Shown piece after piece: positions 693 through 51,703 of a stretch of 64,000 nucleotides of DNA. Made by a program: the position numbers and the translations under genes. The stretch is taken from the NCBI RefSeq assembly GCF_002162315.1, contig NZ_CP021416.1, forward strand, positions 2,058,207 through 2,122,206, written 5' to 3'. Within the stretch, counting starts at the first letter, position 1. Each line of letters opens with the position of its first letter. This stretch comes from Sulfurospirillum diekertiae. GTDB lineage: Bacteria; Campylobacterota; Campylobacteria; Campylobacterales; Sulfurospirillaceae. The notes beneath the pieces were generated by a model. It was not told the DNA's origin and did no database searches. It worked only from the letters and a program-made list of their open reading frames with translations.

Positions 693-2645
693 CTATAATG
701 TGCACTGATCATTTAAACGATACCCTACAATCCACCAACCCAGAACAACAATGAGGGCTCCCAAGAAGCCATTGAACGTCAAAAGACAAAAAAGCCCCAT
801 GATGATCGCAATCATCCCTAGCACATAACTGCCAGAGAACACACTAAAGATGGCAACGACAATGCCTGAAAGTCCTACGTAATTGAGATAAACCACTTTA
901 CCTAAAAGCGCTCTAAATTGGCACATAGGAAGCATCGGATCAGCCGCACACACGTCTACCCAAGACTCATTGACATAGACACCCTCTTTCATCGCCACCA
1001 AAAGGAGTGCACTGACAATTAAGATCAAAAAAGACTTGGTAATGCCACACAATTTAGATGGAGAAAGCCATAAAGTCGAACCAAAAACTAGTACAAAAAC
1101 AACCCAATTCAGCGCAAAATCATTCCGTGCACTTTCATGCAGTAAAACCACCAAAGCACAGATAAAAAGCGTCAAACCACTGACCTTTTCCATCAAGCCA
1201 TTCAGCTCTTTGCGTTCTGTAGCGAAATAGACCACCGCATAAACCGTAGCGATGATACCCAGCGTTCCAAGTTCAAAGTTCAGATACCTTCCATCAAACG
1301 CTAAAGCAAGTGCCATAACGAGCACAACACTCACGCTTAAAAGGTGTAAGGCATCTTCCCAGAACATTTCACTTTTGGGTTCACTCAGCGTTATAACACT
1401 CATAAATCGTGCCATAGAACCACGCATTTCTATCTCTTCATCAATGAGAAAACGCACCAGTTTCAACCACAATAAAAAAGCGATACTCAGGCACAAAATC
1501 GCCCATGCGTATTCAAGATTGTTCCGCGAAACGATCCAGTAAGCATTGGCTTGCCATGTAAGTGCTACTGAACCACCAAAGAGAGTCGCAAACCAGTACG
1601 GCGCTTTTTTGCATGAACATCGTGGCAATCCCCAAAGCCAAATCAGCCCAACCAGACTGAGTGTACAACTAGCGATGAAAAGCCAAAGGGCATTGGGAAA
1701 GTTGGAAACAAACCCATGTAAGATGTGTTTATCGGCGCGATTGGCATCAAACAGACCCCAAAAACCACCTACTGCACCTTCACTCATGCGTTTCCACGGC
1801 TGGTCAAACGCCTCTATAAAATTGTACTTCCAGCCATTTTCTTCTGCCATTTTGACAAAACCACGCGTGAAGAGCGCTTGGTTCACAGCACTGGGGTATG
1901 CACCTTCTCTCATACGCCCTTCGCTCGGCCAACCCGTCTCCCCGATGACGATCTCTTTGTCAGGTATTTTTTGTTGCATCAACTCGCGAATATTCTTTAC
2001 ATGTAAAAGCGCTTTGTCCACACTGATGGGCTTGTCTTCCCAGTATGGCAAGATGTGAATCGTCACCCGATCCACCGCTGGAGCGATCTCAGGATGTTTG
2101 TTCCAAAACTCCCATACATCTGCATACGTGATGACCATATCAGGAAGCGCTTGTTTCACCTCTTGGATGTATCCCACCAATTGAGAAGCACTCACATCGT
2201 TACGTAAAAGCGCTTCATTTCCCACCACAACCGTTTCGATGATGTCTTTGTTCTCTTTGGCTAAACGAATCGTAGTGTCGATCTCTTTGCGCGTCAAAGC
2301 GGCATCACTGCTCACCCATGCGCCGAGCCACATCTTAAGCCCATGTTTACGTGCAATTTCAGGTAGTTCTTCTAGCCCAACGCTCGAATACGAGCGAATA
2401 CAACTCGTAATGGTCGCCAAATGCGCCAAGTCCTTGTCCATCTGCTCCGTTGAAGGCCTGAACCCTTTGGCAATGTTCATCGGCGACTCATCTTTGCCAA
2501 AAGGGGCATAAGAGAGGCATTGTAATTTAACATTTGGGTCTAACGTAATAAGGTTCGAAGAAGGCAACGCCATCCAAAACCAAAAAAGTCCCAGCGACAC
2601 AAACATCGCAATATAAAAAAGGATCATTTTAAACGTGTGATTCAT
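693..2645 (-). CDS. Membrane-anchored GH17-family glycoside hydrolase/transglycosylase
   Basis: About 650 residues. An N-terminal signal anchor (hydrophobic run near residues 8-25) is followed by a GH17-like (beta-1,3-glucanase clan) domain. The GNEA motif holds the probable acid/base Glu (about residue 144) and GETGWPSEG the probable nucleophile Glu (about residue 236). The C-terminal half, from about residue 320, is a run of hydrophobic membrane segments. Bacterial GH17 proteins of this design are linked to beta-glucan remodelling or glucosyl transfer. That role is inferred here, and no glycan synthase lies next to it in the window. I chose the ATG at 2645 over the in-frame ATG at 2660 because GGAG sits nine bases upstream and a TATAAT box lies just ahead, leaving almost no leader for the longer form. 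It carries one TTTACATGTAAA copy, read as LHVK. Confidence 0.75.
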   Translation of the reverse strand: MNHTFKMILFYIAMFVSLGLFWFWMALPSSNLITLDPNVKLQCLSYAPFGKDESPMNIAKGFRPSTEQMDKDLAHLATITSCIRSYSSVGLEELPEIARKHGLKMWLGAWVSSDAALTRKEIDTTIRLAKENKDIIETVVVGNEALLRNDVSASQLVGYIQEVKQALPDMVITYADVWEFWNKHPEIAPAVDRVTIHILPYWEDKPISVDKALLHVKNIRELMQQKIPDKEIVIGETGWPSEGRMREGAYPSAVNQALFTRGFVKMAEENGWKYNFIEAFDQPWKRMSEGAVGGFWGLFDANRADKHILHGFVSNFPNALWLFIASCTLSLVGLIWLWGLPRCSCKKAPYWFATLFGGSVALTWQANAYWIVSRNNLEYAWAILCLSIAFLLWLKLVRFLIDEEIEMRGSMARFMSVITLSEPKSEMFWEDALHLLSVSVVLVMALALAFDGRYLNFELGTLGIIATVYAVVYFATERKELNGLMEKVSGLTLFICALVVLLHESARNDFALNWVVFVLVFGSTLWLSPSKLCGITKSFLILIVSALLLVAMKEGVYVNESWVDVCAADPMLPMCQFRALLGKVVYLNYVGLSGIVVAIFSVFSGSYVLGMIAIIMGLFCLLTFNGFLGALIVVLGWWIVGYRLNDQCTL

Positions 2646-2676
2646 GCAATTATGCTCCATTATTATTAATGGCGCG

Positions 2677-2682
2677 ATTATA
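2677..2682 (-). promoter_or_regulatory. Candidate -10 box for the GH17 gene
   Basis: A perfect TATAAT on the minus strand, about 31 bases ahead of the chosen start codon. There is no convincing -35 box, which is usual for sigma-70 promoters in Campylobacterota. Confidence 0.45.
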
Positions 2683-2786
2683 CAGAAAATGGGTTTAAGG
2701 GTTTACATGTAAAGAAATATTATTTGCCAAGTAATTAATATTCTGATAAAATTAAAACTAAATTTATATATACAAAGGAACCAAAA

Positions 2787-3152: not shown

Positions 3153-3180
3153 ATCCTTTACGAGTGACAAATTGAGGATT

Positions 3181-3214
3181 AGGGAGAAATTTTTACATGT
3201 AAAGATTTCTCCCT
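3181..3214. terminator. 34-bp near-perfect palindrome with TTTACATGTAAA at its centre
   Basis: AGGGAGAAAT (3181-3190) pairs with ATTTCTCCCT (3205-3214), and the 12-bp motif fills the middle. The only mismatch is T3191 with G3204, a wobble pair in RNA. It lies 29 bases after the stop at 3152 and can act as a transcription-stopping hairpin, although no long T-run follows. Confidence 0.5.
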
Positions 3215-3305
3215 GCTGAAAGCTTTAAAACAACCTTCCTTTTTCTCCCAAAACCTCACGGAATAGTTCTTGTATAACCCTCTTTATCACATATAAAGGA
3301 TACAC

Positions 3306-3866: not shown

Positions 3867-3933
3867 TAGCCACTTTATGACAGAATATTTTTGATTTCGT
3901 GCTACACTATTACATGTAAAAGAAAGGAGTAGC

Positions 3934-4782: not shown

Positions 4783-4886
4783 AATATTACCTCCATAACG
4801 CATACTAAACGATAGCACATCAACACTTTATCCTCGCAAAAGAATGTTTGGAGTAAAATATTAGCTATTTTTAACCTAAAGGTACA

Positions 4887-6884: not shown

Positions 6885-7823
6885 ATGGCACAAAAAGCGC
6901 TTGTACTTCTCAATATGGGAGGTCCTAATAACCTAGATGAAGTCAAACTCTTTTTATCCAATATGTTCAATGACAGTAATATCATAACGGTTAAAAGCTC
7001 ACTTTTAAGACGTTTGATTGCTTTCATCATTACTGCATCACGCACAAAACAAGCACAAGCAAATTACGCAAAACTGGGTGGAAAATCGCCCTTAGTGGGA
7101 TACACCCAGCAGCTTGTTGATAAACTGCAAAAAGTTCTCCCGTCTTTACATGTAAACTTTGCGATGCGCTATACCCCACCTTTTTGCAATGAAGTTATTG
7201 CTGGACTTCAGGAGAAAGGGATTGAAGAGGTCATTTTACTGCCACTGTATCCGCACTATTCAACAACTACCACCAAGTCTTCCGTTGAAGATTTTATGAA
7301 AGTTGCCAAAACATTAGGCTTCACGGGTAAAATACGCGTTATTGATCGTTTCTATGAAAATAAAATGTATAACCTGCTTTTGGTTAAAAACATTAAAGAG
7401 GCGCTTGGTAAAAATGACCCTACCCAAATGGAGCTTATCTTTTCTGCCCACTCGTTGCCTCAAAAAATTATCGCTAATGGGGATCCTTACCAAAAAGAGA
7501 TCACTTTACATGTAAAGCTCATTACCGAACTTCTAAGAGAAGAAAAGCTTCATTTTAAAGCGATTCATCTCGCCTACCAATCCAAACTTGGTCCTGTAAA
7601 ATGGCTTGAGCCTTCTATGGAAGAAAAGCTAACTTCGCTTGAGAATAAAAATGCGCTCATTGTACCGATTTCATTTACGATTGATAATTCTGAAACGGAG
7701 TTTGAACTCTGCATGGAGTATGCAGAACTAGCGCATACATTAGAGTTTGATCGTTATATCGTTGCTAAATGTCCAAATGATGATGAGGCTTTTGTGGAGT
7801 GTATTACACACCTTATTGCTTGA
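6885..7823 (+). CDS. hemH: Ferrochelatase
   Basis: Inserts Fe2+ into protoporphyrin IX, the last step of heme synthesis. The 312 residues include LLNMGGP at the start, the LPLYPHYSTTTTKS segment, the SAHSLP motif with the catalytic His near residue 186, and YQSKLGPVKWLEP followed by a late Glu-rich motif. The ATG follows the upstream stop directly with AAAGG upstream. The gene overlaps the convergent ftsI by 11 bases. Two TTTACATGTAAA copies lie in it, read as LHVN and LHVK at variable positions. Confidence 0.93.
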   Translation: MAQKALVLLNMGGPNNLDEVKLFLSNMFNDSNIITVKSSLLRRLIAFIITASRTKQAQANYAKLGGKSPLVGYTQQLVDKLQKVLPSLHVNFAMRYTPPFCNEVIAGLQEKGIEEVILLPLYPHYSTTTTKSSVEDFMKVAKTLGFTGKIRVIDRFYENKMYNLLLVKNIKEALGKNDPTQMELIFSAHSLPQKIIANGDPYQKEITLHVKLITELLREEKLHFKAIHLAYQSKLGPVKWLEPSMEEKLTSLENKNALIVPISFTIDNSETEFELCMEYAELAHTLEFDRYIVAKCPNDDEAFVECITHLIA

Positions 7824-12143: not shown

Positions 12144-13175
12144 TTGCTATTACGGGTGGAGGAACAGGTGGTCATTTGGTTATTGCCCCGTGCTATTAAA
12201 GAAGAGTTAAATAAGCGCGGACTCAAACCCATTTACATTGGGTCTACTGCAGGGCAAGATCAAACGTGGTTTGAAAATGATACGGGATTTGAAAAAACCT
12301 ATTTTTTAGAAAGTCGTGGTGTGGTCAACAAAAAAGGGATACATAAAGTCCTTGCCCTCTTTACGATCATTCGTTCAGCCTTTACATGTAAAGCTATTTT
12401 CAAAAAACATCAGATCAAATATGTTTTTTCAGTGGGTGGATATTCTGCTGCTCCAGCTTCATTTGGAGCACTACTGTGCGGTATACCGCTTTATATTCAT
12501 GAACAAAATGCCATTCAAGGTAAACTCAATTCCCTTTTAAGACCTTTTTCTAAAGCATTTTTTAGCTCCTATGACACGAAAGCAACCATGACTAGCTACC
12601 CCGTGAGTGAAGCCTTTTTTAAGAGTCAAAGAGAACGATCGAATCTTAAAACGATCATCTTTTTAGGAGGAAGCCAAGGAGCAACCTTTATTAACCATCT
12701 AGCACTTAAAATGGCAAAGCTTTTACAACAAGAAGGTATTGCTATTATTCATCAAACAGGGAAAAAAGAGTTTGAGCAAATAAAAAAATTTTACGAAGAT
12801 GAAGGTATTTTAGCAGACGTATTTGATTTTTCTAATGATATCCCTGAAAAACTTATGCGTGCCGACTTTGCTATTAGCCGCTCAGGAGCGAGTACATTAT
12901 GGGAACTTTGTGCTGCAAATGTACCCGCATTATTTATTCCCTACCCTCATGCAGCCGCAAACCACCAATACTTTAATGCAAAAGCACTCGTAGATCAAGA
13001 AGCAGCACTTATCCTTCCACAAAAAGACATTGACCCAGTAGCACTTTTAACTCACATTAAAAGTATCAATCTCTTAAATGTTTCCAAAAAATTATCTCAA
13101 CTCATTCATGATGGTGGGGCTAAAGAAATCGTCGACTCAATGTTACAACCCAAAAATAAGGAGAACCCATGTTAG
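12140..13175 (+). CDS. murG: MurG, lipid II GlcNAc transferase, frameshifted at a C4 run
   Basis: Adds GlcNAc to lipid I on the inner membrane face. The true start is the ATG at 12140, overlapping the ftsW stop. It reads MIAITGGGTGGHLVIA, and the frame then breaks at CCCC (12186-12189). Dropping one C joins it to RAIKEELNKRG and the rest of the protein, about 344 residues, close to the family's usual length. Later motifs include EQNAIQGKLN, FLGGSQGA and SRSGASTLWEL (UDP-GlcNAc site). Since murG is essential, the extra C is almost surely a sequence error. One TTTACATGTAAA copy reads FTCK. The gene overlaps the next gene by 7 bases. Confidence 0.9.
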
Positions 13176-13779: not shown

Positions 13780-14658
13780 ATGCCATTTAGTCTACAAAGA
13801 TCACTTCAAACATCGTTAAAAAGTTCTTGGACGATTTTGAAGCTCATTGTACCTATTTACATTTTGGCAGACATTCTATTCTATTACAACCTTCTTTCGT
13901 ATATTACCTTTATCTTTAAACCACTGGTCGCATTTTTAGGGCTCCCTCAAGAAACAGCTCTTTCTCTTGTGAGTGGACTTTTTCTCAATCTTTATGCAGC
14001 CATTGCCTTTGCAGCACCTCTTGGGCTTAGTGCTAAAGAATGGACTATCCTAGCCATTTTTTTAGGCATAGCACATGCTCTTATTGTTGAAACAGAAATT
14101 ATGAGGCGATTAGGTATTTCTAGAGTATATTCCATTCTTTTAAGGCTCAGCGTTGGATTACTAGTAGGAGGACTAACCTCAAAACTTCCTCAGAGTTGGT
14201 TCTCTAATGAACTAAGTCAAGAAGCTGTAGTACCATCACACCCTTTGTATCATTCACTCTTAGATCTATTACAAAATTCTTTGTATGAATCGCTTTCGCT
14301 ATCACTAAAAGTCATGCTACTGGTTACTACACTTATTTTCGTTCTTGACTTCATTAAATCACTGCAAATGATTGAACAGCACTCACAAAAAGTCAATAGC
14401 GGTTTTTCAATTTTAGTCGGTGTAATTTTAGGAATCACTTATGGTGCGGGTATATTAATTGCAGAATATGAAAAAGGTTTTTTACAAAAACGAGAAATTT
14501 TATTTATTGGTACCTATTTAATGATCTGTCATGCGATTATTGAAGATACACTCCTTTTTGTTATCTTTGGAGCCAATTTGTGGATTGTGGTAGGCTTACG
14601 CATCATGTTTGCAACCCTTATCGCTTATCTTGTCTTAAAATATAAAAAAATTACTTAA
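13780..14658 (+). CDS. Membrane protein with nucleoside-recognition (Gate) domain
   Basis: 292 residues with about eight hydrophobic segments. Two Gate-like halves are visible. The first is around residues 10-130 (LIVPIYILADILFYYNLLSY, then VSGLFLNLYAAIAFAAPLGL). The second is around residues 165-290. The family is named for nucleoside-transport gating, but members such as the spore-maturation proteins have unclear roles, so the substrate is open. The start follows an AGCC-rich spacer with no clear ribosome site. It converges on the thioredoxin gene and overlaps it by 8 bases. Confidence 0.7.
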   Translation: MPFSLQRSLQTSLKSSWTILKLIVPIYILADILFYYNLLSYITFIFKPLVAFLGLPQETALSLVSGLFLNLYAAIAFAAPLGLSAKEWTILAIFLGIAHALIVETEIMRRLGISRVYSILLRLSVGLLVGGLTSKLPQSWFSNELSQEAVVPSHPLYHSLLDLLQNSLYESLSLSLKVMLLVTTLIFVLDFIKSLQMIEQHSQKVNSGFSILVGVILGITYGAGILIAEYEKGFLQKREILFIGTYLMICHAIIEDTLLFVIFGANLWIVVGLRIMFATLIAYLVLKYKKIT

Positions 14659-15044
14659 ATTCTTGCTCATATACTTCATCTAAAAGTTCTATAAAACTTA
14701 CAGGTTCAATATAACCCGCAAAATCATCTATAATTTTGAGATCACTTGGCGATAAAATTAAATTGGTAGGAAAATACTTTACATGTAAAGCTTGTGGCAA
14801 TTTAGAATCTTCTTTATTTATCGTTACATGTAAATACTTTTTTTCAATCTGATTACGATATATTGTATTTTCAAATACGTCTTTTTCCATTTTAATACAA
14901 TAAGGACAAAGCTCTTTTGTCACGCTTAATAAAATTAATTTCTTTTCATTCAGTGCTTTTTTGCGTTTCAACTTCCAAAAACTCCGCATGCAATGAGAGT
15001 GCACCTAAGAGAAATATGAATAAAACACAAATCCATTTTTTCAT
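14651..15044 (-). CDS. Secreted thioredoxin-fold protein (CPYC), frameshifted at a 6-base run
   Basis: The ATG at 15044 overlaps the stop of the upstream transporter (ATGA) and opens a Sec signal peptide (MKKWICVLFIFLLGALSLHA). The frame breaks at T6 on the plus strand (14959-14964). Removing one base gives EFLEVETQKALNEKKLILL followed by the redox motif KELCPYCIKME, and ends at 14651, about 130 residues in all. The 394-base length is 3n+1, as expected. It is likely a periplasmic thiol-disulfide or thioredoxin-like protein. It holds one perfect TTTACATGTAAA (LHVK) and one near copy (LHVT). Confidence 0.75.
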
Positions 15045-24164: not shown

Positions 24165-24311
24165 GATCTTAAAAAATTGGTAGGTTCTACACAAAAAGGA
24201 GGTATGTGTCTTACACTCGAAAGTATAGGCTCCTTGTTTAAACAAGATATGAACCATTCGTTAATAAAACCTAAACCTGCACAAATCGTTCATATTCTTT
24301 ACATGTAAAGC

Positions 24312-28040: not shown

Positions 28041-28117
28041 GTTTATCGACATAATAATCTTTTTTGTCTAAAATTTTTCTTAAAAAAAAGCGTTTTATGC
28101 TTTACATGTAAAGTATC

Positions 28118-29182: not shown

Positions 29183-30532
29183 TTAGCACTCTTTCACGAT
29201 ATGAGAAAGTAACCACGTCATCGCCAAAAGATCGGCACTGCCACCAGGGGAGAGATTTTTTGAGATCATATCGGCGTCCAATTCTCGCAAAAAAGTGTCT
29301 AAATTTTCTGCGTTTGGCTTTACATGTAAAAGTGCTTGTGTTTGTGTTTTGGCGTAAGCGAGCCCTTCAACGCCACCTCGTGACCAGAGCGTGCTGTCAT
29401 CTAAACGTGACATCAGCAACAACAGTGTTTTTTTAAGTGCAATCTCTTCGCCCTCTTCTTTTTTACATGCTTGGAAAAACGGCAAAGCGCTCTCAAAAAT
29501 GATGTCAAAACCACTCTGCGCAATGCCACGAATGCCACTGCTTCCCGTTTCGTAAAAAAAACGTGCCCCTGCGCTGTTGGGCTTTACATGTAAAAGATCA
29601 TCTTCGACCAAATTGGCGCACAGTGCTTGCATTTGGGTTTGTAAACGTTTACATGTAAAGCTCTGGTTGCATCCTTTAAGTCGTCCAATGGCTCCACAAA
29701 AAACGGCTAAACAGAAGATCATTCCTTTGTGAGTATTGACATTTGACGTGGCTTCAAACATCGCTTTTTCGCAGGCAATGCCAATCTTTCGAAGTCTTAC
29801 GAAACTCTGTTTGGCATCTTCATGGGCATACGTTTGCGCGGTTTGAATCCATTGTATCACAAACGGTTTGATCGCGCGAATGCTTGTATAGAAGGTATGA
29901 ATGTCCATATCGTGGTGTGCGCCACTGTTGGCTTGGTCGACCAAACCCGGTTTTGGAGTCAGTTCGACTTCGGTTTGCATGGCACGTTCACACCACAAAG
30001 CAATCGAGTGAGCAAACGCATGTTTTTCAACCAACTGTTTGATATAGAGATTTAATTCTGCATAGGTGTGTCTTTGGGAGCGCGCACAAAGCTGTGCTTC
30101 CTCTTCACAGGCAAAGCAACGACGTTTTGGAAGTCCAAGCGCACTTCGTGAGAGAATGTTTCCCGTGAGATCCAGCACATCAATATCCATCAAACGCCCG
30201 AGGGGATGAGTCATTTCTACTTTACATGTAAAGGCTTTGAGCACCTTTGCATCTACTTTACATGTAAAAAAAGATTCCGCTCCACTTGGGGAAAGTTTGC
30301 TTTCGCAGGCGAGTAGTTCGATGCCTTCTTCTTGGAGCATTTCCAAAAGGGCTTGATGCGCTATTTCGTGTGCGACAACCGCTTCATGCGAAAGTTTAAT
30401 GAGGCTAGGAATATTAATCGTAAGTGAGATAAGCGATGCCAAAGGGTGGCGGCTTAAAAGCTCTTTTTGCTTCCAAGCACGCTCTTCTTTGGCGTATAAA
30501 ATAGTCTCTAGCGTCGTTGGTTGGTCTATCAT
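29183..30532 (-). CDS. citXG: CitXG fusion: citrate lyase prosthetic-group synthesis and transfer
   Basis: 449 residues. The N-terminal half, about residues 1-170, is CitX (holo-ACP synthase: GRLMDIDVLDLTGNILSRSA, then a Cys-rich CFACEEEAQLC). The C-terminal half, from about residue 175, is CitG (triphosphoribosyl-dephospho-CoA synthase: ELTPKPGLVDQANSGAHHDM and TSNVNTHKGMIF). Together they make the 2'-(5''-triphosphoribosyl)-3'-dephospho-CoA cofactor and attach it to CitD. The start directly abuts the citF stop. It holds five TTTACATGTAAA copies, three read FTCK and two LHVK, the densest cluster in the window. No frame break is seen. Confidence 0.9.
   Translation of the reverse strand: MIDQPTTLETILYAKEERAWKQKELLSRHPLASLISLTINIPSLIKLSHEAVVAHEIAHQALLEMLQEEGIELLACESKLSPSGAESFFTCKVDAKVLKAFTCKVEMTHPLGRLMDIDVLDLTGNILSRSALGLPKRRCFACEEEAQLCARSQRHTYAELNLYIKQLVEKHAFAHSIALWCERAMQTEVELTPKPGLVDQANSGAHHDMDIHTFYTSIRAIKPFVIQWIQTAQTYAHEDAKQSFVRLRKIGIACEKAMFEATSNVNTHKGMIFCLAVFCGAIGRLKGCNQSFTCKRLQTQMQALCANLVEDDLLHVKPNSAGARFFYETGSSGIRGIAQSGFDIIFESALPFFQACKKEEGEEIALKKTLLLLMSRLDDSTLWSRGGVEGLAYAKTQTQALLHVKPNAENLDTFLRELDADMISKNLSPGGSADLLAMTWLLSHIVKEC
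29319..30268. repeat. Cluster of five TTTACATGTAAA copies in citXG
   Basis: Copies start at 29319, 29583, 29648, 30221 and 30257. The last two are only 24 bases apart (12 codons from motif end to motif start is not reached; the motif-to-motif period is 36 bases, a multiple of 3), so both encode FTCK in the same frame. Confidence 0.9.
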
Positions 30533-32032
30533 TTATGCCAATTGGCGCACGACGTCGATAATGGAACCATCACGGTATCGAATGACCGCAACCACTTTGT
30601 CGGTGTATTTGATCTCAGCAGGGACACCACATAATGCAATCGCTCGCTCATAGAGCTCTTCCATCTCAACGATTTGAAGTCCTGCTTTTTTAAGGCGCTC
30701 TTTGAGTTCCACATTTTTAGGATTGACTGCGATGCCTTGATCGGTCACGAGCACATCAACGCTAGAGCCAGGCGTTACAATGGTATTGACCCGTTTGGTA
30801 ACGGTGGGAATACGTCCACGTGTAAGTGGCGCTACGATGATGGAGAGCTTTGCATCTGCAGCCGTGTCACTGTGTCCACCCGAAGCGCCACGGAGTAACC
30901 CTTTTGAACCAGTGATGACATTGACGTTAAAGTCAAGATCGACCTCAAGCGCACTTAAAACAACGATGTCAAGCTGACGCGTCGCAGCACCTTTGGAACT
31001 GGGGTTGGCGTATTCATTCGCGCTAATCTCAATGTGGTTTTTGTTTTCACCCAAAGATTTTGCGGCAAATTCATCAAAACTTTGGACATCCAAAAGTGTT
31101 TTAATCAGACCACGTTTGAGCATGTAAACCATCGTACCGGTGATACCACCGAGTCCAAAGCTTGCGTGGATGCCTTTTTCTTCCATCTTTTCACTTAAAA
31201 AGACAGTTGTTGCCAAAGAAGCGCCACCTGTTCCGGTTTGAATGCTAAAGCCCTCTGTAAAAAGCCCTGAATGTTCAATCACTTTTGCCGTATGACCCGC
31301 GAGTAAAAGCTCTTTAGGATTGGTCGTCATACGTGTCTCGCCCGCACCAATTTTGGAAGGATCACCCACCTCATCAACCACAACCACCGCATCTACTTGA
31401 TCTTGGGAAAGACTAGAAGGTACATTGGGATACTCTTCTAAAGATTCGCTCAGAGCGATCACATAGTTTGCGTATTGCGCATCAATCATGGCATAACCAA
31501 GTGAGCCACATTTGGAACGACCTGAGTAACCATTGGCATTACCAAAAACATCGCATACTGGTACCCCTAAAAACGCTACATCGATTTTGAGTTCACCCGT
31601 TTGAAGCAGATTCACACGTCCACCGTGAGAGTGGATTTGCACTGGTTTTTCCATCAAACCTTTGGAAATCGCTTCACCGAGTTTACTACGAAGTCCTGAA
31701 GTATAAATCTCTGTTACCACTCCATTTTTAATGTGCTCAATCACAGGATCATGCACAGAAGCAAGTGAGCTAGAAGCTAAGGTCAGGTTTTTAAAACCCA
31801 TTTTAGCGATCACATTCATCACGTTATTGAGCAGTAAGTCACCACCACGAAACGCATGGTGAAAAGAGATGGTCATACCGTCTTTCAACCCTGAACGATG
31901 AATCGCCTCTTCAATACTCAAACAGAGCTTAGCACGCCTGTCTTCACCTTTCATATGATCTTTACATGTAAAGATGGGAGCACCCACCGTTGTGAGCGTG
32001 TCTACTTTAAATTGTTTTTCAAAATCTTTCAT
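30533..32032 (-). CDS. citF: Citrate lyase alpha subunit
   Basis: Citrate:acetyl-ACP transferase, about 499 residues, exchanging acetyl for citryl on CitD. The family pattern includes the GLKDGMTISFHHAFRGGDLLLN segment near residue 50, SHGGRVNLL, and GTGGASLATTVFLSEKM. The ATG at 32032 overlaps the citE stop (ATGA), and the longer in-frame start at 32080 has no such coupling. One TTTACATGTAAA reads FTCK near residue 22. Confidence 0.93.
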   Translation of the reverse strand: MKDFEKQFKVDTLTTVGAPIFTCKDHMKGEDRRAKLCLSIEEAIHRSGLKDGMTISFHHAFRGGDLLLNNVMNVIAKMGFKNLTLASSSLASVHDPVIEHIKNGVVTEIYTSGLRSKLGEAISKGLMEKPVQIHSHGGRVNLLQTGELKIDVAFLGVPVCDVFGNANGYSGRSKCGSLGYAMIDAQYANYVIALSESLEEYPNVPSSLSQDQVDAVVVVDEVGDPSKIGAGETRMTTNPKELLLAGHTAKVIEHSGLFTEGFSIQTGTGGASLATTVFLSEKMEEKGIHASFGLGGITGTMVYMLKRGLIKTLLDVQSFDEFAAKSLGENKNHIEISANEYANPSSKGAATRQLDIVVLSALEVDLDFNVNVITGSKGLLRGASGGHSDTAADAKLSIIVAPLTRGRIPTVTKRVNTIVTPGSSVDVLVTDQGIAVNPKNVELKERLKKAGLQIVEMEELYERAIALCGVPAEIKYTDKVVAVIRYRDGSIIDVVRQLA

Positions 32033-35334: not shown

Positions 35335-35461
35335 TAAGAAGAGATAATGAAAAAGAGTAGAAAAATGGCTAAAAATGGTCTTTTTGATGCGTATAAACGC
35401 GATTTAAGAGAGGATAACACTACTCCAATACAGCCCTTCTCATTCTTTACATGTAAAGATA

Positions 35462-36655: not shown

Positions 36656-37088
36656 TTTCAAAATCCCAGAAAAACTTAATCCACTCGGTTGTTTCACGAG
36701 CAGTAAAATCGGGACGAAGCAACGCTTTTTCTTTGTAAAATACCGAAGCAATTTTAAAATCAATTTCAGGGTATTGTGCCCTCAAAACACGCTCTATCTC
36801 GATCATCGTCTCACCACTGTCAATGATATCATCAACAATAATAACACGTTTGGCTCTGCTTAAATCAGGGATATTAAAGATGTTGATGGTATCTAGCTTC
36901 CTCGTCTCTTCATAATGCACCGAATTGATGGAGTAAAGGTCGCGCATCTCCAACGCTACTGCTAAAAAATGACCTAAGGTCATACCACCACGAGCCACCG
37001 CCAAAATAACATCAGGCGCATAAGGCTTGATCTCTTTTGCAAGGGTGTTCACATCTTCTTTAAACTCTTCATAACTGTAGTAACGCAA
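36639..37088 (-). CDS. Purine phosphoribosyltransferase (Gpt/xanthine-guanine type)
   Basis: 149 residues. VIIVDDIIDSGETM near residue 80 is the PRPP-binding motif, and LAVARGGMTLGHFLAVALEM near residue 29 is the pyrophosphate loop. It converts a free purine base plus PRPP to the nucleotide. The start is a TTG at 37088 with AGGAAGGA eight bases upstream, and it begins 1 base after the permease stop. That linkage indicates purine salvage; exact base specificity is not visible. Confidence 0.82.
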   Translation of the reverse strand: MRYYSYEEFKEDVNTLAKEIKPYAPDVILAVARGGMTLGHFLAVALEMRDLYSINSVHYEETRKLDTINIFNIPDLSRAKRVIIVDDIIDSGETMIEIERVLRAQYPEIDFKIASVFYKEKALLRPDFTARETTEWIKFFWDFEIDNYK

Positions 37089-38405: not shown

Positions 38406-39470
38406 TTAATACGTCTTGAGTTCGTTATAGAGACTATCGCGTTCCACGGCAGTAAAACCGCTCGTTTCGATCAACTCTAAAATACTTTGCATTCCAAGGC
38501 CTTTGGCACTGTTAGCACCTGCGGCAGATTGGATAGATTCCACTTCAATCGTACCATCCAGATCATCCGCGCCATATTCCATGGCAACAAGAGCGAGATT
38601 GATCGTTGAAGTTGCCCAGTAGGCTTTGATGTGGTTGATATTATCAAGCATCAAACGGCTGATGGCAAAGGTTTTAAGAATTTCGGTAGAGCTTAAAAAA
38701 TCGTCTACATGTAAATAGTTATTGTCACGTTGATAGACAAGAGGAATAAATGCATTAAAGCCATGAGTGCGATCTTGTAGGTCACGAAGACGAAGCATAT
38801 GATCGATGCGGTGTTCGCGTTTTTCCACATGCCCGAAAAGCATCGTGGCATTGGACTCATGCCCTTTTTTGTGCCAAAGTTCATGAATATGCAACCACTC
38901 CGTTGAGCTGACTTTTCCTTTGCAGATGTACTCACGCACACCCTCATCAAAAATTTCAGCACCACCACCGGGCATCGAATCCACACCATGCGCAATCATC
39001 TTGTCAATGACTTCTTCGAAACTGAGATGATATTCTGTTGCCAAAAAATTGATCTCAGCTGCTGTCAAAGCCTTTACATGTAAATGAGGGAAACGCTCTT
39101 TGATTTTAGAAAAAATCTCCAAATACCACTCAAGTCCCGTGGCAGGATTGTGCGCAGAGACCACGTGCACTTCGGTAATGTGGTTGTCTTTCACGGAGTG
39201 ATCTAAAATCTTTAAAATCTCTTCGTGGGTCATCGTGTAGGGGTTGGGATTTTTACGGTTGGCAGAAAAAGCGCAAAATTTGCAGATGTCTTTGCAGATA
39301 TTGGTGGGATTAATATGTCGGTTGACATTGAAAAAAACTTTGTTTCCATGAAGATTTTTGCGTCTTTGGTTAGCATATTTACCTAACGTAAAGAGGTCAA
39401 GATCGTAGAGCGCTATACCATCTTCAAGGCTTAAGCGTTCGTTATTTTCGAGTTTTTCGATAAGCGTCAT
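38406..39470 (-). CDS. mqnE: Aminofutalosine synthase (radical SAM)
   Basis: A key enzyme of the futalosine route to menaquinone. It joins a 3-enolpyruvyl-benzoate intermediate to an adenosyl radical. The 354 residues carry the CKDICKFCAF iron-sulfur motif (CX3CX2C) near residue 60, VHVVSAHNPATGLEW and the SMPGGGAEIFDE segment. It matches the menaquinone-dependent respiration of Campylobacterota. It is upstream of the purine genes on the same strand. One TTTACATGTAAA (LHVK) and one near copy (LHVD) lie inside. Confidence 0.92.
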   Translation of the reverse strand: MTLIEKLENNERLSLEDGIALYDLDLFTLGKYANQRRKNLHGNKVFFNVNRHINPTNICKDICKFCAFSANRKNPNPYTMTHEEILKILDHSVKDNHITEVHVVSAHNPATGLEWYLEIFSKIKERFPHLHVKALTAAEINFLATEYHLSFEEVIDKMIAHGVDSMPGGGAEIFDEGVREYICKGKVSSTEWLHIHELWHKKGHESNATMLFGHVEKREHRIDHMLRLRDLQDRTHGFNAFIPLVYQRDNNYLHVDDFLSSTEILKTFAISRLMLDNINHIKAYWATSTINLALVAMEYGADDLDGTIEVESIQSAAGANSAKGLGMQSILELIETSGFTAVERDSLYNELKTY

Positions 39471-40809: not shown

Positions 40810-40901
40810 CAAATATATCCTTTACATGTAAAGTTTGAGAGTCTCTAATTTGAGAGTATTATAGCTTAGATTTCATAAGGTTAAATGGGGGGAGAATAGA
40901 A

Positions 40902-41137: not shown

Positions 41138-43663
41138 ATGGAAATCGAAGAGATTATTGAAGACCTAATTGACAAAAATGCGGATGATTTTGAAATATCA
41201 AAGCTCATTAAAGAACATATTAAAAGTTATCTTGGCTCCTTGAATGAAATTTTTGTTGAAAACCAAGGTAAAGATTTCTTAGTCAAACACGCCAAACAGA
41301 TTGATCAATTTATCATTCTCATTTACAAATATACCTTACGCAAATATTTTGGTAACTACATGCCCTTTGTCAACTCTATTCCTGTCGTGCTGGTTGGCAT
41401 GGGAAGTTATGGAAGAGAAGAGCTTTGCGTCTATTCAGATACGGACTTGATGGTAGTGTATAAAGCGCTTCCAGGCTATAACATAGAGCCTATGATCCAG
41501 TCGATGCTTTACCTTGCATGGGATGCAGGCATAAAACTCGGACATCGTACGCATAAACTTGAAGAGCTTGTTCCTTCCAGCAACCAAGATCTCACCATCA
41601 AAACAGCGATGCTAGAATCTCGCTTTTTATGCGGCTCTAAGCTTTTATGGATGGAAACCGAACGTGAGCTCTTAAAAATTCAACGTTGGCAAAAAAAAGA
41701 GGTGATACAACAAATCGTTGAAGCCAATGAGGAGAGACGCGCCAAACACCCGATGAGCATGGAACCTAATATCAAAGAAGGTGTGGGAGGACTTAGGGAT
41801 GCCAATACCCTTTCATGGATCTGCAAAATTCTCTTTGGAAATATGCGTATACGCGATCGTGTACCTGAAATTATTGATGAAGAGGAGTATCGAGAGTTTC
41901 GAAGTTCATTGGAATTTCTATTTCGTGTACGTTCCGCTCTTCATCTGAGTGCAAAGAAAAAACAAGATGTACTCAACCTTGAATTCATCCCCGATGTGGC
42001 TGAAAAACTAGGTTTTGAAAATAAAATCTTAAAAAATGCCCAAATGCAACTTGCCTCCAAAACGATGTCGGCAATGCACACGATTGACGTTACATGTAAA
42101 ATCTTTATGCGTAAGCTTACCTCTTCTATCCTCTCGCAACCAACGCGTTTGAGTGCCCTCAAACGTGGTCGTGTCGAAAAAGGGCTTTATGTGGTCGATC
42201 ATTGTGTTTTTGCCTCTTTTAAAAAACCTAGCCCAAGCTTGAGTGTCGTTTTAGCGCAACTGCAACAGTTTGATGACCCAAAACTCAGCTTCGACATTAG
42301 CTATGTACATTACATCAAAAACGCTCATTTTGCACCCCATAACTCCAAAAAAATTTACAAACAGTTCAGGGCACTTTTATTTCAACAAAATCTTTACACT
42401 CTTTATAGCCTCCTGTATGAAGCCTCACTTTTGCAACAGCTCATTAAACCTGTGCGCCAAATCCTAAATCTTGCCCAATTTGATGGCTACCATAAGTTAC
42501 CAGTGGATATTCACTCTTTGCACACACTCTATCACTTAGAAAATATCAAAGAACCGTTCATCAAGTCCCTCTTTGACGATCTCTGTCCTGAAGGAAAAGC
42601 ACTCATCAAACTGGTTGCATTTTTACATGATATAGGCAAAGGAAGAAAAGGCGATCACAGTGAACTGGGTGCAAAAATTTTTAGAGCTTACGCGATGAAA
42701 CTAGAGTTTTCAGAACAAGCAATCGAAACAGGAATTACGCTTATTAAAAACCATACTTTAATGAGCAATACGGCCAATCGGGAAGATATTTACGATGAAA
42801 GAGTCGTCCTTGCCTTTATTTCCAAGCTTCAAAATCCTCAAATCCTCAAACTGCTGTATATTCTCACCTATGCGGACACGAATGCGGTCAATGACAACAT
42901 TTACACCGGTTTTGTTGCCAAATTACTGCGCGAATTTTACAACTACAGCCTCGATATGTTCGATAAAGAGGAACTCATCGACGAGACAACCAAACGCTTG
43001 CGTAAAGAAAATAGCCTTAAAAAGAGTCCTGAATTTTTAGAGCTATCCAAAGCATTACAGAAAAAGACACTCTCGGTACAATCTAATTTCTTTTTCTTGA
43101 AGCTTAAACCAAGTGCCATTGTCCAGATTGTCAAAGAGGCTGACGAGACACCTATTGACTCTTACTGTTATAAAATTAACAACGATTCACATCTCAGCAT
43201 CACAGTTATCCGAGGTAAAAGCTTTAACATCGGTTACCTTTTAGGAAAACTCTCCTATCTTGATCTGGTTCAGATGGATATTTACAAGCTCTTTGATGGT
43301 AAAAAATACTTTCAAATCGACTTTAATGAGAAAGTCACAGAGAATGACATTGAGCTTATTTGTGAACTCATCGATAACTCGTTTGATATGGGCAAAAAAG
43401 TTACATTGAAAAAACCAATTATCCTGAAAAATGAGATTAGTATTGACTGTGAACACTCCAAATCCTATGCACTCATGCACGTCAATACTAAGAACCAACA
43501 CGGCCTTATGGCATATTTGATGAGTGTGTTTGATGAGCATGGAATTGATATTGCAATGGCAAAGATTCAGACCATTAAGAATAGGACGCGAAACCTACTT
43601 TTAATAGAAAAGACAGCGCGCTTATGCAACAATGGACAAAATATACTAGATTATTTTTATTAA
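41138..43663 (+). CDS. glnD: [Protein-PII] uridylyltransferase / uridylyl-removing enzyme
   Basis: 841 residues. The nucleotidyltransferase domain has GSYGREELCVYSDTDLMV near residue 88. The HD domain has LVAFLHDIGKGRKGDHSELG near residue 495, and ACT-like sequence ends the protein (ALMHVNTKNQHGLMAYLMSV). It senses glutamine and controls PII and glutamine synthetase. ATGGAAATC follows TTGAGGAA. The last bases run into glmS, 13 bases downstream, so the two may be co-transcribed; nitrogen sensing next to an enzyme that uses glutamine is sensible. A near copy (TTACATGTAA) of the palindrome lies at 42090. Confidence 0.85.
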   Translation: MEIEEIIEDLIDKNADDFEISKLIKEHIKSYLGSLNEIFVENQGKDFLVKHAKQIDQFIILIYKYTLRKYFGNYMPFVNSIPVVLVGMGSYGREELCVYSDTDLMVVYKALPGYNIEPMIQSMLYLAWDAGIKLGHRTHKLEELVPSSNQDLTIKTAMLESRFLCGSKLLWMETERELLKIQRWQKKEVIQQIVEANEERRAKHPMSMEPNIKEGVGGLRDANTLSWICKILFGNMRIRDRVPEIIDEEEYREFRSSLEFLFRVRSALHLSAKKKQDVLNLEFIPDVAEKLGFENKILKNAQMQLASKTMSAMHTIDVTCKIFMRKLTSSILSQPTRLSALKRGRVEKGLYVVDHCVFASFKKPSPSLSVVLAQLQQFDDPKLSFDISYVHYIKNAHFAPHNSKKIYKQFRALLFQQNLYTLYSLLYEASLLQQLIKPVRQILNLAQFDGYHKLPVDIHSLHTLYHLENIKEPFIKSLFDDLCPEGKALIKLVAFLHDIGKGRKGDHSELGAKIFRAYAMKLEFSEQAIETGITLIKNHTLMSNTANREDIYDERVVLAFISKLQNPQILKLLYILTYADTNAVNDNIYTGFVAKLLREFYNYSLDMFDKEELIDETTKRLRKENSLKKSPEFLELSKALQKKTLSVQSNFFFLKLKPSAIVQIVKEADETPIDSYCYKINNDSHLSITVIRGKSFNIGYLLGKLSYLDLVQMDIYKLFDGKKYFQIDFNEKVTENDIELICELIDNSFDMGKKVTLKKPIILKNEISIDCEHSKSYALMHVNTKNQHGLMAYLMSVFDEHGIDIAMAKIQTIKNRTRNLLLIEKTARLCNNGQNILDYFY

Positions 43664-47342: not shown

Positions 47343-47350
47343 AGGCACTT

Positions 47351-48214
47351 ATGAAATTTTATCGTGTCTATGTGGAGCTCACCAATATCTGTGGGCTCGC
47401 ATGCAGTTTTTGCCCTCCTAAAACACTCTCAACACACAGCATGTCGCTTCCTTTTTTTGAACAGGTGTTGGATGAATTAAAACCTTACACCAAAGAGATA
47501 GCCTACCACATGGGTGGTGATGCACTCACACTTTCCAATTTAGAAGCCTATTTGGATATTACATGTAAAAAGAATTTTAAAGTCATGCTGACAACCAGTG
47601 GCTATTATTTGAGTAAGCACAATCTTCAAACACTTTTACATCCTGCTATCAAACAGATCAATATCTCGCTCAACAGCTACAATAAAAACAGTATGCCGCT
47701 CTCTTTTGAAGCCTACATGGAACCTATCATCAAACTCTGTGCACTTAAATCAGAACATAATCGAGACCTTTTCATCAATCTGCGTTTATGGAATATGGAC
47801 AAGACGCATAGTGAAGAAACATTTAATGAAAAACTCTTTGCCTATCTCGGAAAAGTCTTTCACACACCTTTACATGTAAAAACACTTTATGAGCAAAAAC
47901 CTCGTTCCATACGCTTAAGTGAAAAAATACGCCTTCACTTTGACGACTATTTTGAATGGCCTAGCCTTCAGTCCAACCACCAGAGTGATGGACCCTGCCA
48001 AGGGCTTCGTTCCCATTTTGGAATTCTCAGCAATGGAACAGTCGTACCGTGTTGTTTGGATAAAGAGGGAGTGATGGCGCTTGGAGATTTACATGTAAAC
48101 TCACTGAGTGACATTCTCAATACTCCAAGGACCAAAGCCATTATTGAAGGGTTTAAACACGACAGAGCCGTAGAAAGTTTATGTCAAAAATGCACCTATA
48201 AAAAACCGTTTTAA
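47351..48214 (+). CDS. Radical SAM/SPASM-type protein of unknown substrate
   Basis: 287 residues. It opens with YVELTNICGLACSFCPPK, the CX3CX2C cluster motif near residue 14, and a SAM-binding GGDAL motif follows near residue 56. The C-terminal Cys set (CQGLRS, then VVPCCLDKEG and CQKCTYKKPF) is SPASM-like and would bind an extra FeS cluster. It lies 8 bases after the diguanylate cyclase stop and just before a HIT protein, a run that looks co-transcribed. Two TTTACATGTAAA copies read LHVK and LHVN, and a third near copy reads ITCK. Confidence 0.75.
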   Translation: MKFYRVYVELTNICGLACSFCPPKTLSTHSMSLPFFEQVLDELKPYTKEIAYHMGGDALTLSNLEAYLDITCKKNFKVMLTTSGYYLSKHNLQTLLHPAIKQINISLNSYNKNSMPLSFEAYMEPIIKLCALKSEHNRDLFINLRLWNMDKTHSEETFNEKLFAYLGKVFHTPLHVKTLYEQKPRSIRLSEKIRLHFDDYFEWPSLQSNHQSDGPCQGLRSHFGILSNGTVVPCCLDKEGVMALGDLHVNSLSDILNTPRTKAIIEGFKHDRAVESLCQKCTYKKPF

Positions 48215-48223
48215 GGAAAACTA

Positions 48224-48595: not shown

Positions 48596-48674
48596 CCCCA
48601 TTTTTGGGCATAGTTTAATCTCTCTTTTGGTAATCTTTAGGATAAATTTAGAAAATAATCATTAAAGATAACGA

Positions 48675-50106: not shown

Positions 50107-50166
50107 TCACGTGTTATTCAAAAATGAGTTCATCAAAGAATTTTCTTAAAGATTAAGGAGCATTGT

Positions 50167-51396
50167 GTGAGCACTTACGTGGGTAGACAACCTATTTTTG
50201 ACAAAGAAGGTGTGTGCTTTGGGTATGAGCTCTTGTACCGTTCATGTGATCAGAACAATATAGCGACATTTCAAGATAGCGCTAAAGCAACGGCACGGGT
50301 AATGGTCAATATGGTTCACAATATTGGTCTTGCGCCTATTATTGGACAAAAAGTAGGCTACATCAATGTTGATGAGACGATGCTCTTTAGTGATGCTATT
50401 TTACTTCTCCCTAAAGAACATTTCGGCTTCGAGATTCTAGAACATACAAAAATCTCTCCAGCACTATTTGAACGGGTGAAGCATTTACATAGCCTCGGGT
50501 ATCGTTTTTCACTAGATGATTTTGATTGTAGCGATGGCATGATCAACGCTTATAAACCACTTTTCCCTTATATTGAAATCATCAAAGTTGATATCCAAGC
50601 GATCGGTATTCCCAATCTTAAAGCCTCGATTGATAAACTTGAAACACCCATTCCTCTCCTTGCAGAAAAAATAGAAACTCATGAAGAATATGAAGCGTGC
50701 CTCAAGCTTAACTTTCATTTGTTTCAAGGATATTTTTTTGAAAAACCTGTTATTTTAAGTGGCAAACAAATTGAGCCACTTACCGCCAATGCCCTAAGAT
50801 TGATGAACTGTATTCAAGGCAATAATGATGTTGCTTACATCACAGAAAAGTTTGAAACATGTCCTGATCTTGTATATAATCTTTTACGGCATGTCAATTC
50901 GGGTGCTTATCATTTCAAAAACAAAATTACGTCTATCAAACAGATGATTTTATTGTTAGGGCCTCAAAAAATCCTATCATGGTTAGGGCTTTTTTTATAC
51001 GGTGCACCTCAAAATCATCCTTTTGGAATAGAAATTTTTAACAATGCAAAATTTAGAGCTAAAGTGATGGAAGAACTTGCTCTTACCTGCAAGAAAGCCG
51101 AACTTGCGAACAAAGCTTTTTTAACAGGAAGTCTCTCATTGATCGATACGTATTTGAATATTTCCATGCTAGAATTTCTCAACCACGTCAATCTGGATGA
51201 TGAAATTAAAACAGCCCTTCTCTTTCATGAAGGATTTTTAGGTGAATTACTTTTTATCGCAACGGAGATGAACCATTCAAGTGATACGGATGCTACGATT
51301 GAAGCACTCAAACATTACCCTTGTTTTAATACAGATCAATTGTATCAGGCTTGCACCAATGCGACTCTTTTTGTCGAAAATACAGAACACGAATAA
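50167..51396 (+). CDS. EAL-HDOD domain signalling protein (YuxH-like)
   Basis: 409 residues. The N-terminal part resembles an EAL domain (GRQPIFDKEGVCFGYELLYRS, then FSLDDFDCSDGMINAYKPL), but it lacks the EAL triad (ELL instead) and is probably inactive in cyclic-di-GMP hydrolysis. The C-terminal HDOD region (FETCPDLVYNLLRHVNSGAY, then a PQKILSWLGLFLYG stretch) is typical of signalling adaptors. GTG at 50167 is the start, with AAGGAG six bases before it. Confidence 0.8.
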   Translation: MSTYVGRQPIFDKEGVCFGYELLYRSCDQNNIATFQDSAKATARVMVNMVHNIGLAPIIGQKVGYINVDETMLFSDAILLLPKEHFGFEILEHTKISPALFERVKHLHSLGYRFSLDDFDCSDGMINAYKPLFPYIEIIKVDIQAIGIPNLKASIDKLETPIPLLAEKIETHEEYEACLKLNFHLFQGYFFEKPVILSGKQIEPLTANALRLMNCIQGNNDVAYITEKFETCPDLVYNLLRHVNSGAYHFKNKITSIKQMILLLGPQKILSWLGLFLYGAPQNHPFGIEIFNNAKFRAKVMEELALTCKKAELANKAFLTGSLSLIDTYLNISMLEFLNHVNLDDEIKTALLFHEGFLGELLFIATEMNHSSDTDATIEALKHYPCFNTDQLYQACTNATLFVENTEHE

Positions 51397-51415
51397 AAAT
51401 ATAAGGAATGAGACC

Positions 51416-51660
51416 ATGAATATTGTCATATGCTACTGTACACGCTGAGGATACATGCCAAAAGCTTTCCGTGTGAAAGATGAAATAAAAAGTGCTTATA
51501 AAGACGCCAATATAACCCTTACACCAAAAACAGGTGGTTTTTTTGATGTGATCGTTGATGACATCATGATTTTTCAAAGACAGAAAAAATTGGCACGCCC
51601 ATTGAGCGCTTTCCAGAAGTGGGAGAGCTTGTTTCACTGCTTCAACAAGCAGGTTATTAG
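51416..51660 (+). CDS. SelW-like selenoprotein (CxxU), with in-frame TGA and a -1 frameshift
   Basis: A Rdx/SelW-family redox protein. From the ATG at 51416 it reads MNIVICYCTR, then TGA (51446-51448), then GYMPKAFRVKDEI. The CTR-TGA order gives the CxxU motif of selenoprotein W, so TGA is best read as selenocysteine. A second problem is a missing T at T5 (51570-51574). Adding one yields the family IFSK turn and IGTPIERFPEVGELVSLLQQ to the stop at 51658. The corrected length is 81 residues, normal for the family. AAGGA precedes the start. A TTTACATGTAAA within an 18-bp palindrome begins 2 bases past the stop. Confidence 0.85.
51452..51475 (+). promoter_or_regulatory. Candidate bacterial SECIS hairpin for selW
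   Basis: TACATG (51452-51457) pairs with CGTGTG (51470-51475), allowing G-T pairs, with a 12-base loop. It starts 3 bases after the TGA, where bacterial SelB-dependent SECIS elements lie. The stem is short, so this is tentative. Confidence 0.35.
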
Positions 51661-51703
51661 CCTTTACATGTAAAGGCATTGATACTTTTTTTAAAGGTTT
51701 TAA

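What the first reader, a model, noticed from the sequence alone, without database searches (positions are those of the whole stretch)
1996..51674. TTTACATGTAAA is a highly iterated palindrome in this genome
Reading both coding and non-coding sequence, I find 22 perfect copies in 64 kb. At about 60% AT, chance gives roughly 0.3^10 x 0.2^2 x 64,000, about 0.015. The motif sits in both coding and intergenic DNA, in proteins of unrelated families, and in two codon phases, so protein function cannot explain it. It is absent from rRNA and nearly absent from the conserved hydrogenase genes. The pattern recalls HIP1 of cyanobacteria (known as a highly iterated octamer), but the sequence differs and I know of no description for this group. 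Possible roles are a binding site for a chromosome-organising or repair protein, a methyltransferase target (it contains ACATGT), or a self-spreading palindrome tied to mismatch repair.
Basis: partly seen in the sequence, partly recalled or inferred. Interest (0 to 1): 0.88.

Follow-up and report, generated by a model that had tools for sequence, protein, structure and literature searches.

The report
Genome-wide repeated palindrome under selection
A ten-letter DNA palindrome recurs more than a thousand times along the chromosome of a Sulfurospirillum-like bacterium and is kept letter-perfect at nearly every place compared with relatives while the DNA beside it changes, which points to an undescribed genome-wide self-mark or binding site in this group.

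Summary
The window holds 22 copies of TTTACATGTAAA (0.02 expected). The true core is TTACATGTAA: 27 in the window, 1,245 in the whole 2.88-Mb chromosome. The organism lies next to Sulfurospirillum diekertiae. The motif is dense in most of its genus, present in related genera, scattered in 7 of 36 genomes of one other family, and at 0-10 copies elsewhere in the order. Sites are frozen: at 83% DNA identity 44 of 48 compared sites are unchanged, against 19% of random 10-mers, and the low-substitution footprint is just these ten bases. Some lineages lost it; four of five motif-poor genomes sampled show excess broken copies, and four of six lack a solitary HpyI-like adenine methyltransferase whose neighbours are in place, with exceptions both ways. 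No MutL passed the cut-off, so the published mismatch-repair model for HIP1 does not fit. Close pairs sit at gene ends like terminators, as uptake sequences do in Neisseria. I rate it a new variant of the HIP/uptake-sequence kind. My leading mechanism, a self-DNA mark maintained by preferential uptake or recombination, is inferred; the reader protein is unknown.

The parts
1996..2007 (.). 12-mer copy, inside ORF 693-2660 (-)
2702..2713 (.). 12-mer copy, intergenic
3192..3203 (.). 12-mer copy, intergenic
3910..3919 (.). 10-mer core copy, intergenic
7145..7156 (.). 12-mer copy, in ORF 6885-7823 (+)
7505..7516 (.). 12-mer copy, in ORF 6885-7823 (+)
12381..12392 (.). 12-mer copy, in ORF 12144-13175 (+)
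14778..14789 (.). 12-mer copy, in ORF 14651-15004 (-)
14824..14833 (.). 10-mer core copy, in ORF 14651-15004 (-)
24298..24309 (.). 12-mer copy, just after the stop of ORF 24312-25577 (-)
26031..26042 (.). 12-mer copy, in ORF 25574-27709 (-)
28101..28112 (.). 12-mer copy, just after the stop of ORF 28118-29104 (-)
29319..29330 (.). 12-mer copy, in ORF 29183-30532 (-)
29583..29594 (.). 12-mer copy, in ORF 29183-30532 (-)
29648..29659 (.). 12-mer copy, in ORF 29183-30532 (-)
30221..30232 (.). 12-mer copy, in ORF 29183-30532 (-), 36 bp from the next
30257..30268 (.). 12-mer copy, in ORF 29183-30532 (-)
31961..31972 (.). 12-mer copy, in ORF 30533-32080 (-)
35446..35457 (.). 12-mer copy, just after the stop of ORF 35462-36763 (-)
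39073..39084 (.). 12-mer copy, in ORF 38406-39470 (-)
40821..40832 (.). 12-mer copy, intergenic
42090..42099 (.). 10-mer core copy, in ORF 41138-43663 (+)
47559..47568 (.). 10-mer core copy, in ORF 47351-48214 (+)
47869..47880 (.). 12-mer copy, in ORF 47351-48214 (+)
48088..48099 (.). 12-mer copy, in ORF 47351-48214 (+)
51663..51674 (.). 12-mer copy, in ORF 51326-51679 (-)
63494..63503 (.). 10-mer core copy, intergenic

Best explanation
TTACATGTAA is a lineage-specific iterated palindrome that some sequence-specific reader recognises with near all-or-none strictness, so that nearly every site compared (48 to 55 aligned sites per pair of genomes, out of 1,245 in the genome) is held letter-perfect. 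Shown: abundance, strictness, site-by-site constraint, decay in lineages that lost it. Most likely (inferred) it is a self-DNA mark: fragments that carry it are preferentially taken up and/or recombined, so alleles with an intact copy replace broken ones site by site, as proposed for DNA uptake sequences. It may be read with its central CATG methylated by the solitary HpyI-like adenine methyltransferase, much as Campylobacter jejuni takes up only DNA methylated at RAATTY. Once abundant, pairs of sites were co-opted as stem-loops at gene ends (context shown, termination inferred). When the reading system is lost the motif is free to decay.
For: Abundance and range. Strictness: one-mismatch core variants are at background in motif-rich genomes (31 seen/25.5 expected in G000, 8/8.2 in G013, 17/16.3 in G016+G023, 4/3.5 in G017) but in excess in four of five motif-poor genus members sampled (9/2.0 in G020, 7/1.5 in G011, 12/4.3 in G010, 14/2.3 in G021; 7/6.2 in G009). 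Constraint: 52 of 54, 54 of 55 and 44 of 48 aligned sites identical at 91.7, 91.8 and 82.8% DNA identity, against 48, 50 and 19% of random 10-mers; other CATG 10-mers 43, 47 and 19%. Flanks at sites are not slowed. Such constraint on so many redundant sites is easier to explain by per-site drive than by an additive function (inference). Uptake-sequence parallels: permissive placement (no copy in rRNA; in the sampled stretch with secY and rpoA the fewest copies of 20 stretches, 3 against a mean of 8.35, none of them in secY or rpoA), random spacing (CV 1.03 and 1.2), pairs at gene 3' ends, fewer copies on plasmids (4 in 39.9 and 4 in 38.0 kb). The competence-type genes comEC and T2SSF are present in all 31 good genomes of each search. 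Methyltransferase missing where the motif decayed. Methylation-dependent uptake in Campylobacter: PMC10046745 passages.
Against: No uptake, binding or methylation was measured. The type II/competence-type operon and comEC are intact in motif-poor G009 and G020, so only a specific reader could have been lost. Known uptake sequences are not palindromes (recalled). The methyltransferase is neither necessary (G017: 389 per Mb, no D12 enzyme; also G027, and incomplete G001 and G018) nor sufficient (4 of 5 g4 genomes searched have it with 3-11 per Mb; also G030, G035). Its CATG specificity is by homology only.
Confidence: 0.4

Rival explanations
1. The palindrome is the binding site of a dimeric chromosomal protein (nucleoid organisation, recombination or repair), kept by ordinary purifying selection.
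For: Ten-bp symmetric footprint with sharp edges and weak preference at the next positions; strictness like an operator. Several plasmid copies sit near LexA/S24-type regulator genes and some viral contigs repeat TTACATGTAA as an operator-like palindrome, so proteins that bind it may exist elsewhere.
Against: Purifying selection on each of about 1,245 redundant sites is hard to sustain (inference); G009 and G020 live almost without them; no regional bias in 20 sampled stretches; S24-type proteins do not follow the motif (27 of 28 genomes).
Confidence: 0.33
2. HIP in Elhai's sense: a methyltransferase plus methyl-directed mismatch repair creates and keeps the sites.
For: Palindrome with a likely methyltransferase tetramer at its centre; solitary methyltransferase missing in G009, G020, G010, G011; deviations pile up at the outermost bases (42 seen/3.3 expected at position 1), as reported for HIP1 (PMC4390886).
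Against: No MutL over the cut-off in 29 of 29 genomes (18 have fragment hits, best 37.8 bits against a cut-off of 180), while 11 of 14 controls pass. Other CATG and ACATGT sites are not conserved. G017 keeps full density without the enzyme.
Confidence: 0.1
3. The main role is at transcript ends, as stem-loop terminators, and copies inside genes are by-products.
For: 26 of 82 intergenic sites lie 0-9 bp after a stop (4.8 expected); 22-bp pairs are convergent in 24 of 42 and divergent in 1 of 42.
Against: Two thirds of sites are inside ORFs (129 of 194) and as conserved there (31 of 33 against 13 of 15 with G013); palindromic extension of single sites is near shuffled.
Confidence: 0.06
4. Compositional or duplication artefact.
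For: None.
Against: Shuffle and Markov controls, reversed-pattern control, unrelated contexts, conservation.
Confidence: 0.005

Closest known systems
HIP1 and alternate HIPs of cyanobacteria (Elhai 2015, PMC4390886)
   Same: Perfect palindrome at hundreds of copies per Mb, in genes and between them, lineage-specific, likely methyltransferase tetramer at the centre, deviations mainly at the outer bases, sometimes lost.
   Different: AT-rich and longer (TTACATGTAA, 20% GC; Elhai's HIPs are 50-100% GC); about 430 per Mb, not the 1000-2000 he gives; no MutL found; methyltransferase link imperfect; another phylum.
DNA uptake sequences of Neisseriaceae (Frye 2013, PMC3630211)
   Same: Iterated 10-12-mer with semi-conserved outer bases, permissive regions, inverted pairs at terminators.
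   Different: Palindromic; no uptake shown; no excess of one-mismatch core copies in motif-rich genomes; receptor unknown.
Methylation-dependent uptake in Campylobacter jejuni (CtsM, RAATTY; passages in PMC10046745)
   Same: Same order (recalled); adenine methylation of a palindromic motif marks self DNA.
   Different: RAATTY is a common hexamer, not an iterated 10-mer; different site; whether the enzymes are related was not tested.
Chi, KOPS, Noc, SlmA and MatP sites (recalled)
   Same: Chromosomal motifs read by a protein.
   Different: Chi and KOPS are oriented; the others are regional and far fewer.

Membership tests
HIP (highly iterated palindrome) | Palindrome strongly over-represented genome-wide | tested here: met
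   1,245 copies; 194 seen/0.96 expected in 464 kb
HIP (highly iterated palindrome) | Methyltransferase for part of the motif in every genome that has it | tested here: inconclusive
   HpyI-like homologue missing from motif-bearing G017 and G027, and from incomplete G001, G018; methyltransferase classes other than D12 were not searched
HIP (highly iterated palindrome) | GC-rich, 1000-2000 per Mb | tested here: not met
   20% GC core, 433 per Mb
HIP (highly iterated palindrome) | One-base deviations mainly at the outermost bases | tested here: met
   42 seen/3.3 expected at position 1; 31/25.5 at positions 2-5
HIP (highly iterated palindrome) | MutS/MutL repair available (proposed mechanism) | tested here: not met
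   MutL 0 of 29 over cut-off; MutS1 not tested
DNA uptake sequence | Over-represented 9-12-mer spread over the chromosome | tested here: met
DNA uptake sequence | Inverted pairs at gene 3' ends | tested here: met
   22-bp pairs: 24 of 42 convergent, 1 of 42 divergent; any two copies of a palindrome count as inverted
DNA uptake sequence | Competence machinery encoded | tested here: met
   comEC 36 of 37, T2SSF 35 of 37 genomes; the misses are assemblies 86-88% complete; only these two families were searched
DNA uptake sequence | Motif lost where competence is lost | tested here: not met
   motif-poor G009 and G020 keep both gene sets
DNA uptake sequence | Raises uptake or transformation; cognate receptor | not testable with these tools
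   needs experiment
Regional chromosome-organising sites (Noc, SlmA, MatP) | Ori- or ter-biased distribution | tested here: not met
   10-mer counts in 20 stretches of 20 kb run 3-12, mean 8.35, variance/mean 0.89
Restriction-modification site | Recognition site with cognate nuclease | tested here: inconclusive
   no obvious nuclease among ORFs within about 1.5 kb each side of the methyltransferase in 11 genus members, judged by eye; rest of the genome not searched

The most novel reading that the evidence does not exclude
A palindromic self-DNA mark in Campylobacterota, read in a CATG-methylated form, that spreads and keeps itself by preferential uptake or recombination, was gained separately in two families, and decays once its methyltransferase or reader is lost.
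Probability: 0.27. Interest if true: 0.9.

Novelty: new variant of a known kind. Interest (0 to 1): 0.77.

Why it matters
Why short motifs become iterated by the hundred (HIP1, uptake sequences) is an old open question. Here one genus offers a natural experiment: related genomes with frozen, decaying and almost absent motif, a candidate methyltransferase missing from an otherwise intact slot in decayed ones, and culturable species. That makes drive against selection, and methylation against plain binding, directly testable.

Tried and rejected
ComEC and T2SSF as the lost factor: present in all 31 good genomes of each search, including motif-poor ones, and the operon round T2SSF is intact in G009 and G020. 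LexA/S24 regulators, suggested by plasmid sites: 27 of 28 genomes have one. TATCATGATA as a dialect of genus g4: of the 21 genomes searched only G026 is high (166; other g4 genomes 10-15; next G031 of g2 with 38). Helical phasing as the reason for 22-bp pairs: their position at gene ends and the G-N8-C spacer (35 of 36 distinct spacers) fit a stem-loop as well; the inner spacer pairs do not clearly exceed chance, so neither is proven. Regular spacing: not found. Viral contigs: 47 loci with a close pair; 39 hold two or three copies, 8 hold four to seven; hosts were not identified. Solved structures of the methyltransferase family by sequence: none. NCBIfam gave only hits far below cut-off. The ComEC tree lacks G001, G003, G011 and G023, and some forks are open. 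The Fisher tests use groups chosen after seeing the data and ignore kinship; five genus members under 90% complete were dropped from them (G001, G018 without the enzyme; G003, G006, G022 with it, in G006 in pieces).

Full report
Check. The 22 copies of TTTACATGTAAA are exact and at the stated places; 100 dinucleotide shuffles gave 0.02 on average. The window is bases 2058207-2122206 of a single-contig genome of 2,876,536 bp, which holds 792 copies and none of the reversed control. The core is shorter. In a 464-kb sample (the window plus 20 stretches of 20 kb) the nested palindromes are enriched 2-fold (ACATGT), 28-fold (TACATGTA) and 202-fold (TTACATGTAA; 194 seen, 0.96 expected); the 12-mer stands at 124 against 0.16. 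TTACATGTAA occurs 27 times in the window and 1,245 times in the genome, reversed control 5. The next bases prefer T/A and then C/G, giving CTTTACATGTAAAG.

Organism. Genome G023 has the same length, 2,814,086 bp, as S. diekertiae JPD-1 in that listing, and the window's genome is 91.8% identical to it over 150,814 aligned bases.

Range. Among 23 other genomes of the genus the 10-mer count runs from 49 to 1,496. Over related genera have 446-733 (g2), 265 (g3, one genome), 22-593 (g5) and 6-97 (g4). A survey of 298 genomes of the order found it in this family, in 7 of 36 genomes of one other family (f17; 31-367 copies, the other 29 genomes 0-10), and at most 10 copies elsewhere. It looks gained separately, or moved, in f17; I could not test which.

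Placement. By simple ORF of 194 sites are in genes and 65 in the 8.9% outside them. In genes two phases are used; the third would create a stop. There is no site in the rRNA block. Twenty sampled 20-kb stretches hold 3-12 sites each, mean 8.35, variance/mean 0.89; the poorest, with three, holds secY and rpoA, and none of the three is in those two genes. Spacing is random (CV 1.03 and 1.2). Of 82 intergenic sites 26 lie within 9 bp after a stop, 4.8 expected. Pairs favour a 22-bp distance: 42 of 119 pairs at 12-25 bp, from loci of many relatives. Of the 42, 24 lie between convergent genes and 1 between divergent genes; the spacer is G-N8-C in 35 of 36 distinct cases. This fits bidirectional stem-loop terminators, as reported for paired uptake sequences in Neisseriaceae (PMC3630211, passages). 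Termination itself is inferred.

Constraint. Aligning the first 170 kb with relatives: 52 of 54 aligned sites are identical in G016 (91.7% identity), 54 of 55 in G023 (91.8%) and 44 of 48 in G013 (82.8%), against 48, 50 and 19% of random 10-base windows; 2, 1 and 8 of the 56 sites were unaligned. Substitutions fall from about 11% beside the site to 0-2% inside it with G016, and from about 24% to 2-6% with G013, over exactly these ten bases with a weaker effect one base out. Other CATG-centred 10-mers are identical in 43, 47 and 19%, and other ACATGT 10-mers in 39, 44 and 34%, so neither CATG nor ACATGT alone is what is kept. With motif-poor G009 (81.5% identity) 0 of 19 aligned sites are kept; 37 were unaligned.

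Decay. If broken copies persisted, one-mismatch variants would be in excess. In motif-rich genomes core variants are at expectation (31/25.5, 8/8.2, 17/16.3, 4/3.5 for G000, G013, G016+G023 and G017). In four of five motif-poor genus members sampled they are in excess: G020 9/2.0, G011 7/1.5, G010 12/4.3, G021 14/2.3; in the fifth, G009, the poorest, they are at background (7/6.2), as after full decay. G002 was not sampled. In a ComEC tree G009 and G020 form a clade within the genus, with motif-bearing G007, G017 and G018 outside it, though the fork that holds the clade is open. Loss is the simpler reading, and the cell survives without the motif.

What was lost. comEC was found in 31 of 31 good genomes and T2SSF in 31 of 31, motif-poor ones included, and the operon round T2SSF, which I take for the competence (cts-like) operon, is intact in G009 and G020. 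A methyltransferase does follow the motif in part. The genome encodes a solitary 325-residue D12-class adenine methyltransferase at G000:C1:2607450-2608424 (-). Some phage relatives are annotated 'ulcer associated adenine specific DNA methyltransferase', which I take for the hpyIM type; hpyIM methylates CATG (PMC4450513, passages). That it is NlaIII/HpyI-like and specific for CATG is homology and recall, not a test. Among genus members at least 90% complete, 12 of 13 with over 350 sites per Mb have it at 62% identity or more; of 6 with under 250 per Mb none does, and two (G002, G021) have a 56% homologue (densities from rounded genome sizes; Fisher p 0.0003 and 0.017, groups chosen afterwards and kinship ignored). 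In G009, G020, G010 and G011 the neighbours (by eye a Tat-signal protein, a small protein, a response regulator and a histidine kinase) are in place and the gene is not; in G021 the slot is empty too. Whether it was lost there or never gained in some is not settled. Against a simple rule: G017 (99% complete, 389 per Mb, no decay) has no D12 enzyme at all, G027 lacks it, incomplete G001 and G018 lack it, and 4 of 5 g4 genomes searched, G030 and G035 have it with little motif. So methylation is probably involved but is neither sufficient nor strictly needed.

Mechanism. HIP1's published model needs MutS/MutL (PMC4390886; abstract, first part of the discussion and passages). No MutL passed the cut-off in 29 of 29 genomes; 18 gave fragment hits of at most 37.8 bits against a cut-off of 180. 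So the model does not apply; MutS1 was not searched. An additive chromosomal function would exert little selection on any one of 1,245 sites, yet nearly every site compared is held; a per-site drive explains that more easily (inference). Preferential uptake and recombination of marked self DNA is such a drive. It fits the permissive placement, terminator-like pairs, random spacing, lower plasmid load (4 in 39.9 and 4 in 38.0 kb) and painless loss, and Campylobacter offers a precedent for methylation-dependent uptake (PMC10046745, passages). Against it: the motif is a palindrome, the uptake apparatus persists in motif-poor genomes, and nothing was measured. I give it 0.4 and an ordinary DNA-binding function 0.33.

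Verdict. The class of phenomenon is established by the calls; its function is not. Searches of 5.39 million papers for the 12-mer (3 papers), the 10-mer (18 papers), Sulfurospirillum with 'palindrom', HIP terms and uptake-sequence terms listed no description of it, judged by titles and starts of abstracts; passages of the Sulfurospirillum comparative-genomics paper PMC8865925 do not mention it. Most subscription journals are not held there.

Noticed in passing
G026:C1 (genus g4), e.g. loci L155-L157 and L289-L291: Another CATG palindrome, TATCATGATA, is enriched in this genome (14 in 120 kb against 0.6 expected; 166 genome-wide against 10-15 in four other g4 genomes and 38 in G031).
   Followed up: partly
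G127, G146, G263, G185, G297, G172, G197 (family f17): TTACATGTAA is abundant (31-367) in 7 of 36 members of a second family, the rest having 0-10, suggesting separate gain or transfer.
   Followed up: no
L352 7576-11561 and L363 602-2849 (viral contigs): Viral contigs hold 7 and 5 copies of TTACATGTAA, of which 5 and 2 extend to ATCTTACATGTAAGAT, like a phage operator.
   Followed up: no
L312 20493, 21354, 39643; L313 9736, 28796: On two S. diekertiae plasmids several copies sit near LexA/S24-type regulator or DNA polymerase IV genes.
   Followed up: partly
G021, loci L272-L276: In this GC-richer species the consensus is looser: ACATGT 70 against 15.3 expected, and GTACATGTAC 3 against 0.05.
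   Followed up: no
G017 loci L277-L281; G026 loci L155-L157, L289-L291; G000 sample: Strong avoidance of GATC in G017 (83 against 386) and G026 (254 against 744), and of GGCC in G000 (198 against 691), as under restriction pressure.
   Followed up: no
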